Source: Paenibacillus qinlingensis (GTDB lineage Bacteria > Bacillota > Bacilli > Paenibacillales > NBRC-103111). Taken from it: DNA of 64,000 nucleotides. A program made the translations under genes and the position numbers. The number at the start of each line of letters is the position of its first letter. Positions within the stretch are counted from its first letter, which is position 1. The notes below the pieces were generated by a model. It made no database searches, was not told where the DNA came from, and was given only the letters and a program-made list of their open reading frames with translations. Where the stretch lies: positions 248,001 through 312,000 of the forward strand of contig NZ_JABMKY010000001.1 of NCBI RefSeq assembly GCF_013204845.1. The letters run 5' to 3'. Shown one piece after another: positions 2,586 to 57,906 of the stretch.

Positions 2586-3437
2586 TCAAAACTCGCTTCG
2601 GAAGCCTACGCTTGACTTTAAATGTTCCACGACATCCATGCCGATGCGTTTCGAGCCGATAGCTCCGTGGAAAGCAGTATCACCACGTACGCCATGGAAA
2701 TCAGAGCCTGCTGTGATCAGCAGTCCCTTACGCTCTGCAAGAAGTCTATATCTTTCCTCATCTTCTGGCGAATGATCAGCATGGTACACTTCAATGCCAT
2801 CTAATCCTTGTGAAGTAATGACCTCTACTAAAGCATCATCGTGATAAATACCGGGGTGTGCAAGCACCGCTTTGCCGCCAGCCTCATGAATCCATGAAAT
2901 CGCCGTAGCCGGCTCAATACGAGGTGGATTGGCGTAAGCAGCCGCTCCAGTAGCCAAATAGCGATCGAAGGCTTCTGTGATTGTGCTTACATAACCTTTA
3001 TTCATAAGCACAGCAGCAATATGTGGCCGCCCAACCGTATCACCTTTGCGCTTCACATTGGCAACTTCTTTAAGAACTTCCTCCATCGTAATGTCGATGC
3101 TTAGCTCCTGCAGTCGTGCAATAATCATCTCATTACGGGTATCCCTTGTATCGCGTAAGGACGATAATCGTTGTAGAAATTGTTCATCCTCAATGTTCAT
3201 GTAATAACCCAGAATATGAATGTCCTGACCGTTCGCAACCGTTGAGATTTCTACTCCGGGAACAACGACAATGCCCAATTCCAAGCCAGCAGCAAGCGCC
3301 TCCGCTACCCCCGAGATGGTATCATGATCGGTAATCGCAATTGCACCTAATCCGGCTTCTAAAGCCATTGCGACATTCGCTCTGGGAGACTGTGTCCCGT
3401 CTGAGGCTGTTGTATGTGAATGTAGGTCTGCTTCCAT
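2586..3437 (-). CDS. PHP-domain phosphoesterase (RNase AM/YciV type)
   Basis: A 283-residue cytosolic metal-dependent phosphoesterase. The PHP metal ligands are visible: DLHSHTTASDG at residues 4-14, ITDHDT near 36-41, the GVEIS motif near 62, HPG near 192 and a terminal GSDFHG. The length and order fit the TrpH/YciV subfamily, whose members degrade 3',5'-nucleoside bisphosphates or short RNA 5' ends; the substrate here is inferred. The start codon lies only 17 bases after the LysR gene stop and has a GGGGG ribosome binding site, so the two are probably cotranscribed. Confidence 0.88.
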   Translation of the reverse strand: MEADLHSHTTASDGTQSPRANVAMALEAGLGAIAITDHDTISGVAEALAAGLELGIVVVPGVEISTVANGQDIHILGYYMNIEDEQFLQRLSSLRDTRDTRNEMIIARLQELSIDITMEEVLKEVANVKRKGDTVGRPHIAAVLMNKGYVSTITEAFDRYLATGAAAYANPPRIEPATAISWIHEAGGKAVLAHPGIYHDDALVEVITSQGLDGIEVYHADHSPEDEERYRLLAERKGLLITAGSDFHGVRGDTAFHGAIGSKRIGMDVVEHLKSSVGFRSEF

Positions 3438-40548: not shown

Positions 40549-41235
40549 CTAAAACATTTTTCTAGAATTATCTTCTAATTCCGATATGATACTGTTAATA
40601 CCAAAAGAATGCATTAATGCTAAGTGATGTTGATAATCCAAATGTCCCTTGTTTTTCTTGTATTCGAGAAAATATTAAAACATCCCTATTTGACTTTTCG
40701 GTAATTGTGCAACAAATATGTTTGAATAGCTGTATTTTTGTTCATCATTTAGTTTCAATTCATCTCTGACGAACTGGAGAATAAAAATGAAATTATCATA
40801 ACACAGCATGAGATTTTTCATAATAGATAAATACGGATTACTAATCATCTCAAATTGAGTGCTATTTATCCCATTTGGATGACGTGAAATATCATTACTC
40901 AAATCAGAATAATATGTTTCGAATAAATCAATACCTGTAAGTTTCCCTGAAGTTACAGATGACACAATAGTTTTGTGAGCTGTAATCAAGTTGAAAAACG
41001 TTGTTTCAAATCTCTGCAAATTCATCATTTCTCTTTGGCCTGCCAGTTCTGCTGTAGATCGGGCAACTACTTCTCTCTGTAACTTAAGTTCCTCTCGTTG
41101 AAGAGATAACTCTTGACGCTGAATAATTATTGTGAAGATTATTCCTGCAAATGCAAGTCCAGTAAAAAGAGAATTAATTGCTCCAAACATATCTCCAGCT
41201 GTACCTCTATCATCTCCAAAAAGCCTAGTCATCAC
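40549..41235 (-). pseudogene. Putative phage abortive-infection protein (putAbiC-like), interrupted
   Basis: The visible start GTAGDMFGAINSLFTGLAFAG, the repeated ELSLQREELKLQRE coiled coil and QRFETTFFNLITAHKTIV match the putAbiC family (PF16872). A TAA (40675-40677) interrupts the frame, which then continues 42 codons (FLEYKKNKGHLDYQHH). The coding frame is also open upstream of the ATG (SIGIASFWLISGFV), so an N-terminal membrane helix has lost its start. It would have been a phage-defence gene carried by the element. Confidence 0.65.
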
Positions 41236-41445
41236 AAAGCCTGAAATTAACCAAAAACTCGCTATTCCTATCGACCAAGAGATAAATGATTTTTAACCCA
41301 CAGTAAAAACCCCAAAAGTTTTGAATGTAACTTAATTCGCCACATGTAAGAGCTTACCTTTAATTAACTATTTCTTTTTTAGTTTGAAGATGCAGTGCCA
41401 ACTCTTGTTTACTCTGTCGGCTTTGCGCTGCTGTCCATACTTAAT

Positions 41446-41968
41446 AATGATTAGCTTCACCGCTTATAAAGGAGGTATCTCTCGCTCTAGACTTTTGCCC
41501 CGTCCAGGAGGTTCACAATGCCCTGAGATACTTTTGGGAAGGTATGGTTTGTCCTACTGTAAGGAATGTGGTACCACTGTTATGATATCACTGTGAGAGT
41601 TGCATTTCCCCAAACGATCAAACGCGAGTCACACAGGCGGTTACGTGGCTTATGGCGAACCAAACTTTGTTCTTATCCTTTTGAAGAGGGAGTCAGCAAA
41701 GTCTAAAAATGTAACCCGCACGCTAATACCATTGTTAAGCGGTAATTTATTCTGATGCTCTTACCCCTAATGCGCCATCTCCGGAATGGAGCCATATTGG
41801 ACTAGGGCTATTGCCCATCATTGTCCTATCCCAATTGGTTTTCTTATCGGCTACTTTTTCTCCTGATCACACATAGTGTCTGGCTTTGCCTCGCAGAGAT
41901 GTAACTACATTGTACTGACTCCTTCGCCTTCTAATAATGGTACAGTTATATTGTAATAAGTAATCATT
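41446..41968 (+). ncRNA. Candidate large structured noncoding RNA
   Basis: No gene fits 41236-42116, but pairing is dense: an 11-bp helix with wobbles between 41471-41481 and 41525-41535; an 11-bp helix (one wobble) between 41686-41696 and 41915-41925 closing 218 nt; an internal 8-bp helix 41696-41703 with 41882-41889; a stacked stem GGAC/GUCC over GGGC-UAUU-GCCC (41799-41826); hairpins at 41869-41879 and 41899-41910; and an outer 8-bp AAUGAUUA/UAAUCAUU pair (41446 with 41961). Wobbles are G-U on the plus strand, fixing orientation. Size and phage context resemble ornate RNAs such as GOLLD and ROOL, but I cannot assign a class. Confidence 0.5.
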
Positions 41969-42116
41969 CCGTGATTTATACGGATTTACTACTAATTCAT
42001 TACTCATTGATTTGGAAGTCTCAATCCAATCTCACCATCAGTATTACGCCCTCTCCCATAGTCAATAACAACGAAGTCCAATGTTCGATTGATCTTTAAG
42101 CTGCTTGCTATGCTGG

Positions 42117-42628
42117 CTATAGCTCGTCTGCAAAAGTTGTTGCCGCTATTGGATCAATATCCTTTTTGTAACCCTTCTCAATGTATGCTCGAGCCTTTAA
42201 ATACTCCATACCGTCTATAAATAAGAGTTTGACTGCTTGTTTCTCATGCGGCTTCCTGATGTTGTTTATTACGCTTTTGATAATATTGGTTATTGCTAAA
42301 TAGAATTTATAGTTCGCGTGCCGACTGTCTTTCAGAACAACGGAGTTACCTGTTACGTCTGCCTTTACTTCTTGTCCAGTAATGCGTTTCGCTGCATTTC
42401 CTTCTACAGAAAGCAAATCATAGGCAGATAAGCCATTCTCCATTTCTTTAAGAGCGTACTCATAGTTTTAATGATATCGACCATATCAACGTATTTTCCG
42501 AGTAGCCACTTTGTCTTGCGGATATCTTCCTCGGTTATTTCATCAAAGTATGTTACTTGAATTATTTTCTTGTTGTCTTCGAGTTCAGCTGAGGAACTCT
42601 CAATGATTGCTCTTAAACCCTTGCTCAT
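42117..42628 (-). pseudogene. Phage-type protein split by a one-base deletion
   Basis: The start (SKGLRAIIESSSAELEDN, ATG at 42628 after GAGGGTG) reads to KTMS near 42465, where the frame shifts by one base; the frame then continues ENGLSAYDLLSVEGNAAKRI to the stop at 42117. Joined, it is about 170 residues. Its end recalls ArpU/sigma-like phage regulators, but weakly. It overlaps the upstream gene by 29 bases. Confidence 0.55.
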
Positions 42629-42953
42629 ATGGATCACCCTCTGTGGATTTATCACTTTGATTAACTTGTATTTGTTTAAGTGCTTCTTCAACAACTGGTG
42701 GCACATCGCAATCGTATACTCCTAACTGGACCTTCTTTAGAGCCTCTACAGCGATATTTAGCAAATGTTCCTTACTTTGCCTCTTTTCAATTTCATCCCA
42801 AGCAGCACGGTATCCCATAATTAATGAGCGCAAAGTGTGAAGTTGGGTTTGATCTTCAATGAGATGTTCGTCGTTTAATTCTTCAAAGTGGTCTTCAAGC
42901 GCATCCAATGCCGACTCAGGCAGCCATGAGATAGTAATCGTTAAAGTATTCAA
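42600..42953 (-). CDS. Phage-type hypothetical protein
   Basis: 117 residues, acidic and helical (ESALDALEDHFEELNDEH, VPPVVEEALKQIQVNQ). Not recognised. Its 3' end overlaps the next gene, indicating coupling within the early-type array. Confidence 0.6.
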   Translation of the reverse strand: MNTLTITISWLPESALDALEDHFEELNDEHLIEDQTQLHTLRSLIMGYRAAWDEIEKRQSKEHLLNIAVEALKKVQLGVYDCDVPPVVEEALKQIQVNQSDKSTEGDPYEQGFKSNH

Positions 42954-55159: not shown

Positions 55160-56177
55160 CCTACTAATCCGCCCCGAAGAGCGTCTACCCACGCAAAAAA
55201 AGGATGGATACGGAAGGAACTCCACAAAACGAAACATGACGAAGTGTATTACTATTTTCTGAAAAACAGCGAGAAACGCTACATGTACCGACACAAGTAT
55301 TACGATAATCTGGGCAAGCGGAAAGAGAAGAAGGAAGCGCTCAAAGGGCTGGTGGAAGTCAAGGCCGCGCTACTGAACGGGCAAGTGAAACAGGTCGAGC
55401 ATAGCCAGATGACCATAGCCCAATGGCTCGATATGTTGGTATGAAACGTACAACAGCAGTTGGGAAGTCACATCGAGATTACAGCGTAAACACGCCATCA
55501 AACTTCAGATGATGCCGCTTCTCGGGAAGTATACACTCAGCTCTCTGGACAAATCGACGTATGTCGGTGAATATTACAATGTCCTCAAGAAGAAATACAG
55601 TGATAGAACGGTCGCGTTATTCCATCGCTTATTTAAAATTGCGATTAACACAGCAGTGGAGGATGAGATTATTCCCCGTAATCATTTCCAAAAAATCACC
55701 ATTGAGATCAACGGTGATTTGGAGAATGTTCTCACAGCGGCAGAACTAGACTTATTCCTGCAAGTGACCAAGAAGTACGAGAACATTACGAACTATACGC
55801 TCATCCTTGTACTCGCCTTTACTGGCCTTCGCAGAGGTGAAGCGCTTGGTTTGCGGTGGAGGCACGTCAACTTTAATGAGAAAACAGTGACGGTTGAATG
55901 CACTCGCGACCAATATGGATGCAGAACACCAAAAACGAAAAACAGTTACCGTAAGATCCCTGTCGATCAGATGCTGATTAATCAATTGCTCAGTTATCAG
56001 CGCTGGTGCGTAGAGACAAAGTTCTCGTACGGCATGAAGGTGGACAAAGAGAACGACTTCGTCTTCATCTCTTATCAGGACGGCGCGCCGATCGCGGAGA
56101 ACATGGCTTTCTATTCGTTTAAGCGCATACTCAAAATCCTCAAGATGATAAAGAGAAAACACCGATCATTTTCCTAA
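55160..56177 (+). pseudogene. Tyrosine integrase, frameshifted and C-terminally truncated
   Basis: An arm-binding N-terminus (YYYFLKNSEKRYMYRHKYYD) shifts frame near 55438 (WLDM to YETYNSSWEVTSRLQRKHA). The catalytic domain begins with TGLRRGEALGLRW (first Arg) and TKNSYRKIPV, then ends before HxLRHT, LGH and the nucleophilic Tyr. It cannot catalyse excision. It lies next to tyrS, so the right attachment site should be within the last few tens of bases before 56200. Confidence 0.8.
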
Positions 56178-56199: not shown

Positions 56200-57462
56200 T
56201 TATTCAAATTTGACGAGGAAGTAATTCTTTTTACCGCGGCGAATAATGAGATAGGATTCACCCAGTCGACCCAATTGCTTCGTCGTCGCTTCCAGATCCG
56301 TTACCTTCACGCCATTTACTGTGACCGCTCCGCTTTCAATGTCTTGACGCGATTGGCGTTTGGATGGTGCTGCTCCCACAGAAATAAGAAGATCAATCAA
56401 CGCGACGTCATCTTGCTCTAAAGTTGTTGAAGGCACATCCTTGAACGCTTCTTCGATTTCAACACGAGATAGTGATTGGATATCACCACTGAATAAGGCG
56501 GCTGTGATATTAAGCGCACTCTCTAGCGCCTCTCCCCCATGAACAAGCTTCGTAACTTCACGTGCCAGCACTTTTTGAGCTTCTCTCTTACCTGGCTCCG
56601 CTGCTACTTCAGCTTCAAGTCGTTCAATTTCTTCCTGGGATTGGAATGTGAAATATTTCAGGAATCGGACAACGTCATTGTCAGCAGTCCCTAACCAGAA
56701 TTGGTAGAACTGGTACGGTGAAGTTTTGTTTGCATCCAGCCAAATAGCTCCGCCTTCCGTTTTACCAAACTTCTGCCCATCACTCTTCGTAACAAGCGGT
56801 AATGTTACACCAAAAGCGCGACGATCCGTTGTTGATTTGCCGATAAGCTCTAGTCCAGCCGTAATATTCCCCCACTGGTCGCTTCCACCAATTTGAACGG
56901 AACAATTCTTCGTTTCATTTAACTTCAAGAAATCATAGGATTGAAGAATCATGTAACTGAACTCTGTAAACGAAATTCCTTTCGTAATACGTGAATCTAC
57001 AGAATCCTTAGCCAACATGTAGTTCACCGTAAAGTTTTTGCCTACATCGCGTAAAAATTCAATCACATTCAGGGAGCCTAACCAATCGTAATTATTCACT
57101 AACTCAGCACTGTTTTCAATTTCAGTTGAGAAATCAAGGAAACGTGATAGCTGATTTTTAATGCTTTGCGACCACGCTTCAACCACTTCAGGGCCGTTCA
57201 ATGTACGTTCATTCGCTTTACCGCTCGGATCTCCAATAAGCCCCGTCCCACCGCCTACCAAAGCTAAAGGAACATGCCCAGCAAGTTGGAATCTTCTCAA
57301 TGTTAAAATAGGAAGCAAACTGCCGATATGCAAGCTATCCGCTGTGGGATCAAAGCCGCAATATAGGACAACGCGCTCTTCGCTCAGCTTCTTGTTTAAA
57401 CCTTCTCTATCCGTAATTTGATGCAGCAAACCGCGAAACTCTAAATCCTTCAGAATACTCAT
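56200..57462 (-). CDS. tyrS: Tyrosyl-tRNA synthetase
   Basis: 420 residues from ATG at 57462 (AAAGGATGG upstream). HIGH-like SLHIGSLLP near 46, the tyrosine-binding VQIGGSDQWGN near 193, KFGKT as the KMSKS loop near 231, and a C-terminal S4 domain (SRQDIESGAVTVNGVKV). Charges tRNA-Tyr. Controlled by the T-box leader upstream. Its stop is only 23 bases from the integrase remnant and no terminator follows it. Confidence 0.97.
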   Translation of the reverse strand: MSILKDLEFRGLLHQITDREGLNKKLSEERVVLYCGFDPTADSLHIGSLLPILTLRRFQLAGHVPLALVGGGTGLIGDPSGKANERTLNGPEVVEAWSQSIKNQLSRFLDFSTEIENSAELVNNYDWLGSLNVIEFLRDVGKNFTVNYMLAKDSVDSRITKGISFTEFSYMILQSYDFLKLNETKNCSVQIGGSDQWGNITAGLELIGKSTTDRRAFGVTLPLVTKSDGQKFGKTEGGAIWLDANKTSPYQFYQFWLGTADNDVVRFLKYFTFQSQEEIERLEAEVAAEPGKREAQKVLAREVTKLVHGGEALESALNITAALFSGDIQSLSRVEIEEAFKDVPSTTLEQDDVALIDLLISVGAAPSKRQSRQDIESGAVTVNGVKVTDLEATTKQLGRLGESYLIIRRGKKNYFLVKFE

Positions 57463-57492
57463 GTGCAACCATCCTTTATTATGAAATGAAAA

Positions 57493-57906
57493 AACAAAAA
57501 AAGCCTTCTTATCCCAAAGGGACGAGAAGACTTGACTCGCGGTACCACCCTAATTAAAACAGCACTTACGTACATCTATGATAAAACCTCTATCGAGGCC
57601 ATTCAAAGATGAGCGACCGCGTTTAAATGATGGTTTTATCGCCCAAATAGAAAGACGTTTTCGGAAGCCAAAAACTTATACTTTCTATTGTGGTAACCAA
57701 AGTCATAGGCACGGCATGCTATTTTCACTCAAGAACCGATAACGAGGTTTAATCGGTAAATACTACTTGTGCAGGCACATTCCTACAGGTTCCCATTTAC
57801 TGCTCAAGACCGTAATTCACTAACCTGCAGGTACCGGTTCGCACCATCCACCGGCTCTCTGAGAGCATCCACAAGCTACCTACTGCTGATCCATCAACGC
57901 ATTTGT
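57493..57906 (-). ncRNA. T-box riboswitch leader of tyrS
   Basis: About 410 nt of leader with the AGAGAGCCGGTGGATGGTG distal stem I loop, the T-box AATTAGGGTGGTACCGCG (57538-57555) and a terminator (CTTCTCGTCCC with GGGATAAGAAG plus T run) just before tyrS. A UAC Tyr codon at 57812-57814 is the likely specifier. Uncharged tRNA-Tyr would favour the antiterminator. Confidence 0.93.

What the first reader, a model, noticed from the sequence alone, without database searches (positions are those of the whole stretch)
41446..41968. About 520-nt region without genes but with extensive long-range pairing
Two 11-bp long-range helices, an 8-bp internal helix, a two-tier stem with UAUU loop and several hairpins are compatible with each other. 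Wobble pairs are G-U only when read on the plus strand. Large phage RNAs such as GOLLD and ROOL have this size and context. The sequence GGCTTTGC occurs twice (41419, 41882), so the internal helix has two possible partners.
Basis: partly seen in the sequence, partly recalled or inferred. Interest (0 to 1): 0.75.

Follow-up and report, generated by a model that had tools for sequence, protein, structure and literature searches.

The report
New prophage RNA beside antitermination RNAs
A gene-free stretch of a decayed Paenibacillus-type prophage holds remains of two previously unlisted structured RNA elements, read from the opposite strand to the one first proposed, which sit where related phages carry an RNA known to let RNA polymerase run through stop signals.

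Summary
The gene-free stretch is real, but the RNA is on the MINUS strand and is not GOLLD or ROOL: no Rfam family matches. Two conserved RNA elements lie side by side, read leftwards: block 2 (about 41825-41739) and block 1 (41732-41582). Block 1 has 11 known copies, window included, in genomes of this order (named ones Paenibacillus) and phage contigs. In the 10 counted, 97.4% of cells pair and 15 of 38 pairs change on both sides; sliding the partners destroys this. G-U outnumbers C-A cells 41 to 3, fixing the strand. At the late-gene junction block 1 follows a late-regulator-like gene; in two prophages it also follows an Rfam epsC/EAR, a known processive antitermination RNA. All 11 EARs confirmed in phage contigs follow a gene of the same profile by 60-121 nt, though none of 48 EAR-motif contigs holds block 1. 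Best reading: new cis-acting antitermination RNAs (about 50%); a terminated small RNA is the main rival. The window copy is decayed. Neither family, nor EAR in phages, appeared in the paper searches made.

The parts
41582..41732 (-). Block 1 RNA, P1-bounded (covariance-model match 41562-41741 with flanks). P1 41732-41713 with 41601-41582; P3 41703-41697 with 41669-41663; P4 5' side 41656-41651, its 3' side damaged in this copy
   Evidence: 160.4 bits to model R1; the window row was part of the seed. 97.4% of cells paired, 15 of 38 pairs with two-sided changes over 10 sequences; positions
41739..41825 (-). Block 2 RNA, paired part (aligned stretch 41732-41849): closing stem, GGGC-AATA-GCCC hairpin, CTCC-ATTCC-GGAG-type hairpin, H-type pseudoknot (two pseudoknot pairs are mismatched in this copy)
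   Evidence: alignment A9, 22 sequences: 92.9% cells paired, 9 of 22 pairs two-sided, slid controls at most 4
42007..42637 (-). Remnant of a late-regulator-like phage gene (phrog_21810 family), matched in three frames, i.e. broken
   Evidence: tblastn of the intact G025 homologue gives three pieces in frames -1, -3, -2; family
40675..41235 (-). phrog_8999 protein gene (unknown function) downstream of the RNA; a similar-looking gene (by eye) follows the RNA in G025
   Evidence: PHROGs E 6.2e-15; G025 gene
41836..41932 (.). About 97 nt present here and absent from the G025 prophage; holds partners of two of the six 11-bp complementarities
   Evidence: gap between the two G025 alignments; helices

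Best explanation
The minus strand of 41582-41825 carries a degraded copy of two adjacent cis-acting RNA elements of Paenibacillus-type phages. SHOWN: both are conserved structured RNAs, transcribed (by wobble evidence) in the direction of the phage genes; block 1 is a three-way junction closed by a P1 of about 19 bp. SHOWN: in four loci block 1 follows a phrog_21810 (ArpU/RinA-like) gene, and it precedes the terminase in the two of them where a terminase was identified. SHOWN: EARs in phage contigs follow genes of the same profile, and two prophages carry EAR and block 1 in tandem. INFERRED: as the nascent RNA leaves RNA polymerase it folds and, alone or with a protein, makes the polymerase resistant to terminators, as EAR does in the eps operon, so that the late operon (context A) or a long early operon (context B) is transcribed through. 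The window copy has lost about 16 nt and its neighbouring gene is broken, so it is probably inactive.
For: Structure: 97.4% paired, 15 of 38 pairs two-sided, slid controls at most 5; same with L092 added, model-fitted; RNAalifold recovers these helices. Strand: 41 G-U against 3 C-A of 379 cells. Relatives in different families. Neighbour: Rfam epsC/EAR at 90.9 bits abutting block 1 in G085 (L006:2780-2889 against 2884-3064) and at 60.4 bits about 530 nt upstream in G093, same strand; EAR is mostly 1 and at most 4 per genome in 117 relatives, so chance adjacency is very unlikely. Slot: epsC above cut-off in 11 of 46 scanned viral contigs chosen by an EAR motif; all 11 have a phrog_21810/ArpU-like gene ending 60-121 nt upstream on the same strand (six of the 11 genes were used to build the search profile, five were not). 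Terminators on the sense strand within 350 nt: phage EAR 6 of 10 against 24 of 330 random windows (one of the six is weak); block 1 in context A 2 of 4 against 11 of 120 (Fisher 0.054; G025 4 nt and G093 13 nt after the model match, i.e. about 24 and 33 nt after P1); block 2 8 of 23 against 98 of 690; a 16-bp stem with a weaker T tail follows P1 in G085. Published role of EAR: PMC2864571 and PMC7858274 (passages).
Against: No transcription or antitermination data. None of the 48 EAR-motif viral contigs carries block 1, and none of 16 viral contigs with a phrog_21810 gene does (two hits at chance level, E 3.9 and 4.1), so neither EAR nor the gene requires it. Only 2 of the 10 block 1 copies scanned with Rfam have an EAR beside them (L021 was not scanned). 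The seven copies outside context A have no nearby sense terminator (0 of 7; random 14 of 210). Block 1 does not match the EAR model. In G085 another gene lies between the phrog_21810 gene and the EAR. The block 2 terminator count includes identical and near-identical sequences. The tool's own terminator scan of G093 did not list the site that my rule found there. Promoter-like sites were within the shuffle range in all five regions scanned, so no start site is proposed.
Confidence: 0.5

Rival explanations
1. Block 1 and block 2 are parts of a short terminated small RNA made at the late junction (like lambda 6S RNA before tR', recalled), acting in trans or being a by-product; the terminator is simply its 3' end.
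For: Intrinsic terminators begin 4 and 13 nt after the block 1 model match in G025 and G093, and 10-12 nt after the block 2 motif in 8 of 23 loci.
Against: 0 of 7 copies outside context A have such an end, and in context B the RNA lies between same-strand operon genes. EARs in phage contigs also have terminators downstream (6 of 10), and EAR is a cis antiterminator by published account.
Confidence: 0.22
2. A leader-type switch (riboswitch or protein-bound attenuator) that controls only the next gene.
For: Ends shortly before a ribosome binding site in several copies (27, 33, 35, 59 nt in L090, L021, L085, L087).
Against: The distance to the next start varies from 27 to 412 nt in the 9 of 11 copies where one was found, and none was found for L091 and the window. 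The downstream genes differ between contexts. The tested alternative pairing between P1 and the P3 loop is not above shuffles.
Confidence: 0.15
3. Part of a large ornate phage RNA (GOLLD/ROOL type) or a packaging RNA.
For: Phage context; three-way junction; tRNA-like stretches follow block 1 in L086 and L092 (seen by eye); the terminase follows in G025 and G085.
Against: No Rfam match up to E 5. ARAGORN finds no tRNA next to block 1; its only hit in the 29 loci scanned is a tRNA-Met in L021 more than 7 kb away. GOLLD often exceeds 800 nt (PMC12286853 passage). Blocks 1 and 2 occur independently of each other.
Confidence: 0.06

Closest known systems
EAR / epsC RNA (Rfam RF01735)
   Same: Structured, same-strand RNA inside long operons of Bacillales-type bacteria; found here in phage contigs after a phrog_21810/ArpU-like gene, and in tandem with block 1 in two prophages
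   Different: Block 1 and block 2 do not match the RF01735 model (nothing up to E 5 in 41000-42300); block 1 is a P1-closed three-way junction, block 2 a hairpin series ending in an H-type pseudoknot
put RNAs of phage HK022 (recalled, no call)
   Same: Phage-encoded RNA that, as recalled, acts on polymerase in cis without a phage protein
   Different: Recalled as much smaller two-hairpin elements at early promoters; not compared here
GOLLD and ROOL RNAs
   Same: Prophage and phage non-coding RNA of unknown function (PMC12286853 passages)
   Different: No model match; far shorter; no tRNA island called next to it
lambda 6S/tR' late leader (recalled, no call)
   Same: Short leader followed by a terminator at the early/late junction
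   Different: Lambda is recalled to use protein Q; here the leader itself is a conserved structure

Membership tests
EAR / epsC (RF01735) | Match to the covariance model above gathering score | tested here: not met
   cmscan of the window and of 41000-42300 up to E 5: none in the region; the EAR hits in L006 and L089 lie beside block 1, not on it
EAR / epsC (RF01735) | Cis position in an operon, upstream of terminators | tested here: inconclusive
   Same-strand operon position met; sense terminators within 350 nt in 2 of 4 context-A copies and 0 of the 7 others
Processive antitermination RNA (functional class) | Read-through of distal terminators dependent on the RNA | not testable with these tools
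   Needs a reporter assay
GOLLD / ROOL / OLE / HEARO | Match to the Rfam model | tested here: not met
   No match at gathering in the region, none up to E 5 in 41000-42300; that these models are among the 4227 rests for GOLLD, ROOL and OLE (profiles taken from Rfam) and on recall for HEARO
GOLLD / ROOL | Neighbouring tRNA island (often present) | tested here: not met
   ARAGORN: 0 in the window; 1 tRNA in 29 related loci, in L021 and more than 7 kb from the element
ArpU late regulator (neighbouring gene) | Match to TIGR01637 | tested here: not met
   0 NCBIfam matches for the G025 and G085 homologues; of five EAR-adjacent genes tested only that of L168 matches TIGR01637 (E 1.1e-23). The shared family is phrog_21810, annotated as unknown function

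The most novel reading that the evidence does not exclude
Phages of Paenibacillus-type bacteria have an exchangeable RNA slot after their late regulator: EAR, block 2 and block 1 are unrelated antitermination RNAs that replace or stack on each other (EAR+block 1 in G085, EAR+block 2+block 1 in G093, block 2+block 1 in G025 and the window). On this reading the host's eps-operon EAR is one member of a larger, phage-borne set of RNA antiterminators.
Probability: 0.4. Interest if true: 0.78.

Novelty: new variant of a known kind. Interest (0 to 1): 0.6.

Why it matters
Few RNA elements are known (recalled) that by themselves make polymerase ignore terminators. Two new covarying RNA families, plus EAR found in phage contigs at a fixed position after a late-regulator-like gene, suggest that Firmicutes phages switch on late genes with RNA antiterminators. 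They also give a direct experimental route: one reporter can test all three elements. They would be additions to Rfam in any case.

Tried and rejected
Whole-region fold energy: no excess over shuffles on either strand. Plus-strand RNA: rejected by wobble counts. Mutually exclusive pairing of the P1 5' strand with the P3 loop: 84 to 388 of 500 shuffles do as well. Block 1 in another order: the G623 hit (L067, E 3.1e-5) lies in what I read by eye as a repetitive coding stretch and lacks several P1 pairs; treated as chance. Hits to the pattern CAGGCGGTTRYGTGG...: in genome contigs 5 of 36 were real and 31 unrelated; in viral contigs 2 of 4 were real. Record collections: no match for the window region (phages and plasmids) or for a block 1 relative; for block 2, searched in phages only, two 25-nt matches at E 0.1, judged chance. 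The phrog_21810 gene as a marker for block 1: 0 of 16 viral contigs. EAR as a marker for block 1: 0 of 48 viral contigs. The EAR motif scan: 48 contigs, 46 scanned with Rfam (L154 and L177 left out), 11 confirmed; 14 of the others carry another Rfam RNA (Mu-gpT-DE) and no EAR. I first thought of the 215-aa gene as ArpU from memory (so written in early notebook entries); NCBIfam does not support that for these homologues.

Rows dropped: block 1 relatives found twice in different collections were counted once (L009, L052, L063, L085 with L003; L035, L065, L089 with L004; L057, L059, L086 with L011; L058, L061, L088 with L012; L034, L060, L087 with L014; L064, L090 with L013; L008, L062, L084 with L002; L189 with L092). 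The divergent relative L006 (G085, L091) is not in the A3 and A11 counts. In A9 I used 22 of the 25 distinct block 2 sequences listed; L094, L095 and L108 were left out because their 5' part did not look alike, and L068 and L070, found by blastn, were not in that list. In the terminator counts L147 and L098 were left out because the contig ends too soon.

Full report
WHERE. The window is G000:C11:248001-312000 of an 8.9-Mb genome. The five named bacterial relatives of the element are Paenibacillus species. The surroundings are prophage-like: an integrase-family ORF at 55509-56177 beside a tyrosyl-tRNA synthetase gene and its T-box, phage-type regulators, and phrog-family genes on the minus strand down to 40675.

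OBSERVATION. The fold as a whole is not unusually stable on either strand. There are more 11-bp helices than expected (six against 2.0; 1 of 100 shuffles as many), but two of the three that use 41896-41942 depend on a stretch missing from the closest relative.

HOMOLOGUES. DNA searches found matches in 7 of 147 genomes among the relatives and in 14 of 392 in the order, the own genome included in both. Several of these match only the upstream block (block 2) or a neighbouring gene. A covariance model of block 1 (R1, nine sequences) finds 8 of 392 genomes in the order and 3 of 398 in the class, one of which I reject. R2, which includes the divergent G085 copy, finds 3 of 295 in family f10 of G104, one of them new (G757). 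Eleven distinct block 1 copies are known to me: window, G025, G104, G093, G314, G226, G371, G330, G757, G085 and viral contig L021. The large-scale scans use stricter filters and can miss divergent copies; G085 came in through its neighbouring gene.

BLOCK 1 STRUCTURE. On the minus strand: P1 (19 pairs around one mismatch), P3 (7 pairs), P4 (6 pairs), then 2 + 4 nearly invariant pairs. In alignment A3, made by MAFFT without structure, 97.4% of 341 cells pair, 15 of 38 pairs have changes on both sides (shuffles 6.8), and sliding the partners by 1 to 3 columns gives at most 5 such pairs and at most 48% paired. I drew the structure by hand on these sequences; RNAalifold finds the same main helices unaided, with small shifts inside P4/P5. 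With L092 added (model-fitted A11) the numbers are 97.4% of 379 cells and 15 of 38. P1 and P3 carry most of the covariation; the inner P4/P5 pairs hardly vary and so say little.

STRAND. In A11, 41 cells are G-U and 3 are C-A on the minus strand; in A3, counting one pair more, 36 and 3. On the plus strand the 41 would be C-A mismatches. The RNA is therefore read leftwards in the window, the direction of the main flanking phage genes in the relatives inspected.

BLOCK 2. Twenty-two sequences (A9) give 92.9% paired cells, 9 of 22 pairs two-sided (shuffles 6.2), slid controls at most 4. RNAalifold, which cannot draw pseudoknots, recovers three of the five helices. Its 3' part is an H-type pseudoknot (GCGS/SCGC with GCGGTA/TTACCGC). 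It occurs in 17 viral stretches found by pattern and with or without block 1. The strand evidence is weaker than for block 1: 34 G-U against 18 C-A cells in a first version of the structure, half of the G-U from one pair.

CONTEXT. (A) Window, G025, G093 and G085: after a phrog_21810 gene. In G085 a 356-aa gene and the EAR come between, in G093 the EAR and block 2. Large-terminase genes follow in G025 and G085; in G093 an integrase-family gene follows. (B) G104/L009, G314, G330, G226, L021 and G757: mid early operon, before SbcC/SbcD-like genes where tested (L086, L088; the others by eye), often after a small MazE/AbrB-type gene (tested in L086). G371 is a third, unclear context. The distance from P1 to the next start ranges from 27 to 412 nt in the 9 of 11 copies where one was found.

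THE EAR LINK. Rfam finds epsC/EAR in G085 at 90.9 bits, abutting block 1, and in G093 at 60.4 bits between the phrog_21810 gene and block 2/block 1. EAR occurs in 88 of 117 relatives, mostly once per genome and at most four times (G085 is not in its listed rows), so two such neighbours among the 10 copies scanned is far from chance. A motif scan of viral contigs gave 48 stretches; 46 were run through Rfam and 11 hold a true epsC RNA. All 11 have a gene of the phrog_21810/ArpU-like profile ending 60-121 nt upstream on the same strand; none of the other 37 has, 8 of which hold less than 600 nt upstream. Six of those 11 genes built the profile (A10), five did not. PHROGs independently puts four of the five tested genes in phrog_21810 at E 2e-27 to 3e-35; the fifth (L168) is an ArpU by NCBIfam, with only a weak phrog_21810 match. 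None of the 48 contigs holds block 1; block 2 was not sought in them. So EAR and blocks 1 and 2 share a gene neighbour, and in two prophages stand side by side. G131 also has an EAR (57 bits), downstream of what looks like its large terminase gene (by eye).

TERMINATORS. My own terminator rule (stem of 6 or more, T-rich tail) finds a sense-strand terminator within 350 nt downstream for 6 of 10 phage EARs (one of them weak; random windows 24 of 330, Fisher 5e-5), 2 of 4 context-A block 1 copies (11 of 120, p 0.054), 0 of the 7 other copies (14 of 210) and 8 of 23 block 2 copies (98 of 690, p 0.013, with identical and near-identical sequences among them). In G025 the terminator starts 4 nt after the model match, about 24 nt after P1, and another precedes the ORF next to the terminase gene (position by eye). 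In G085 a 16-bp stem with a weak T tail follows P1. The tool's own scan lists the G025 site but not the G093 one.

MECHANISM. EAR is described as antiterminating several intrinsic terminators of the eps operon (PMC7858274 passage) and as likely acting on the elongation complex (PMC2864571 passage). By position, strand, tandem arrangement with EAR, and terminators downstream at the late junction, block 1 and block 2 most likely do the same job for phage operons. This is inference; no expression data were available. A terminated small RNA fits context A nearly as well but not context B.

STATE OF THE WINDOW COPY. It lacks about 16 nt in the P4/variable-hairpin part, two P1 pairs and three P4/P5 pairs do not form, its phrog_21810 gene is found in three frames, and no sense terminator follows. 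It is a remnant; the other relatives carry the argument.

LITERATURE. Searches (phage antitermination RNA in Firmicutes; Paenibacillus prophage non-coding RNA; structured RNA candidates) returned no paper; one returned 7 and 117 returned 3, none of which describes this by its title and the start of its abstract (of these I saw passages of PMC7858274 and PMC12691694 only). One search gave the GOLLD/ROOL papers (passages of PMC12286853). Two searches for EAR with Bacillus or phage returned none and one paper, PMC2864571, whose passages list epsC under Bacillales and exopolysaccharide genes. The library lacks most subscription papers, including the processive antitermination review, so 'not in print' holds only for these searches.

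Noticed in passing
L147, L148, L152, L153, L155, L160, L161, L163, L164, L165, L168 (viral contigs): EAR/epsC RNAs in phage contigs, in all 11 60-121 nt after a phrog_21810/ArpU-like gene, in 6 of 10 followed by a terminator and, by eye, in 6 of the 9 viewed by an integrase-like gene.
   Followed up: partly
L086:10115-10320 and L092 (minus strand, about 1520-1280): tRNA-like stretches (acceptor- and T-arm-like ends around a long interior) just after block 1; not called by ARAGORN.
   Followed up: no
window 57515-57906 (-): T-box leader (104.6 bits) upstream of the tyrosyl-tRNA synthetase gene 56200-57468; the prophage integrase-like ORF lies right beside that gene.
   Followed up: no
L085, L087, L088, L189 (context B): Antisense-strand terminator-like sites within 350 nt after block 1; L086 has antisense sites on both sides of the element. 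They may stop opposing transcription.
   Followed up: no
L071:1108-1177 and L078:5744-5807: Pistol ribozyme and RAGATH-18 RNA about 4.8 and 0.2 kb upstream of phrog_21810-like genes in phage contigs.
   Followed up: no
L085-L087, L021, L092, just 5' of block 1: Hairpin GATGYG-NCTRA-CRCATC directly before P1 in these context-B copies (by eye); in the window, G025 and G093 block 2 sits there instead.
   Followed up: partly
phrog_21810 family: PHROGs lists it as unknown function; weak similarity of members to transcription-regulator families (phrog_248, phrog_36) and its position suggest a late-gene regulator.
   Followed up: partly
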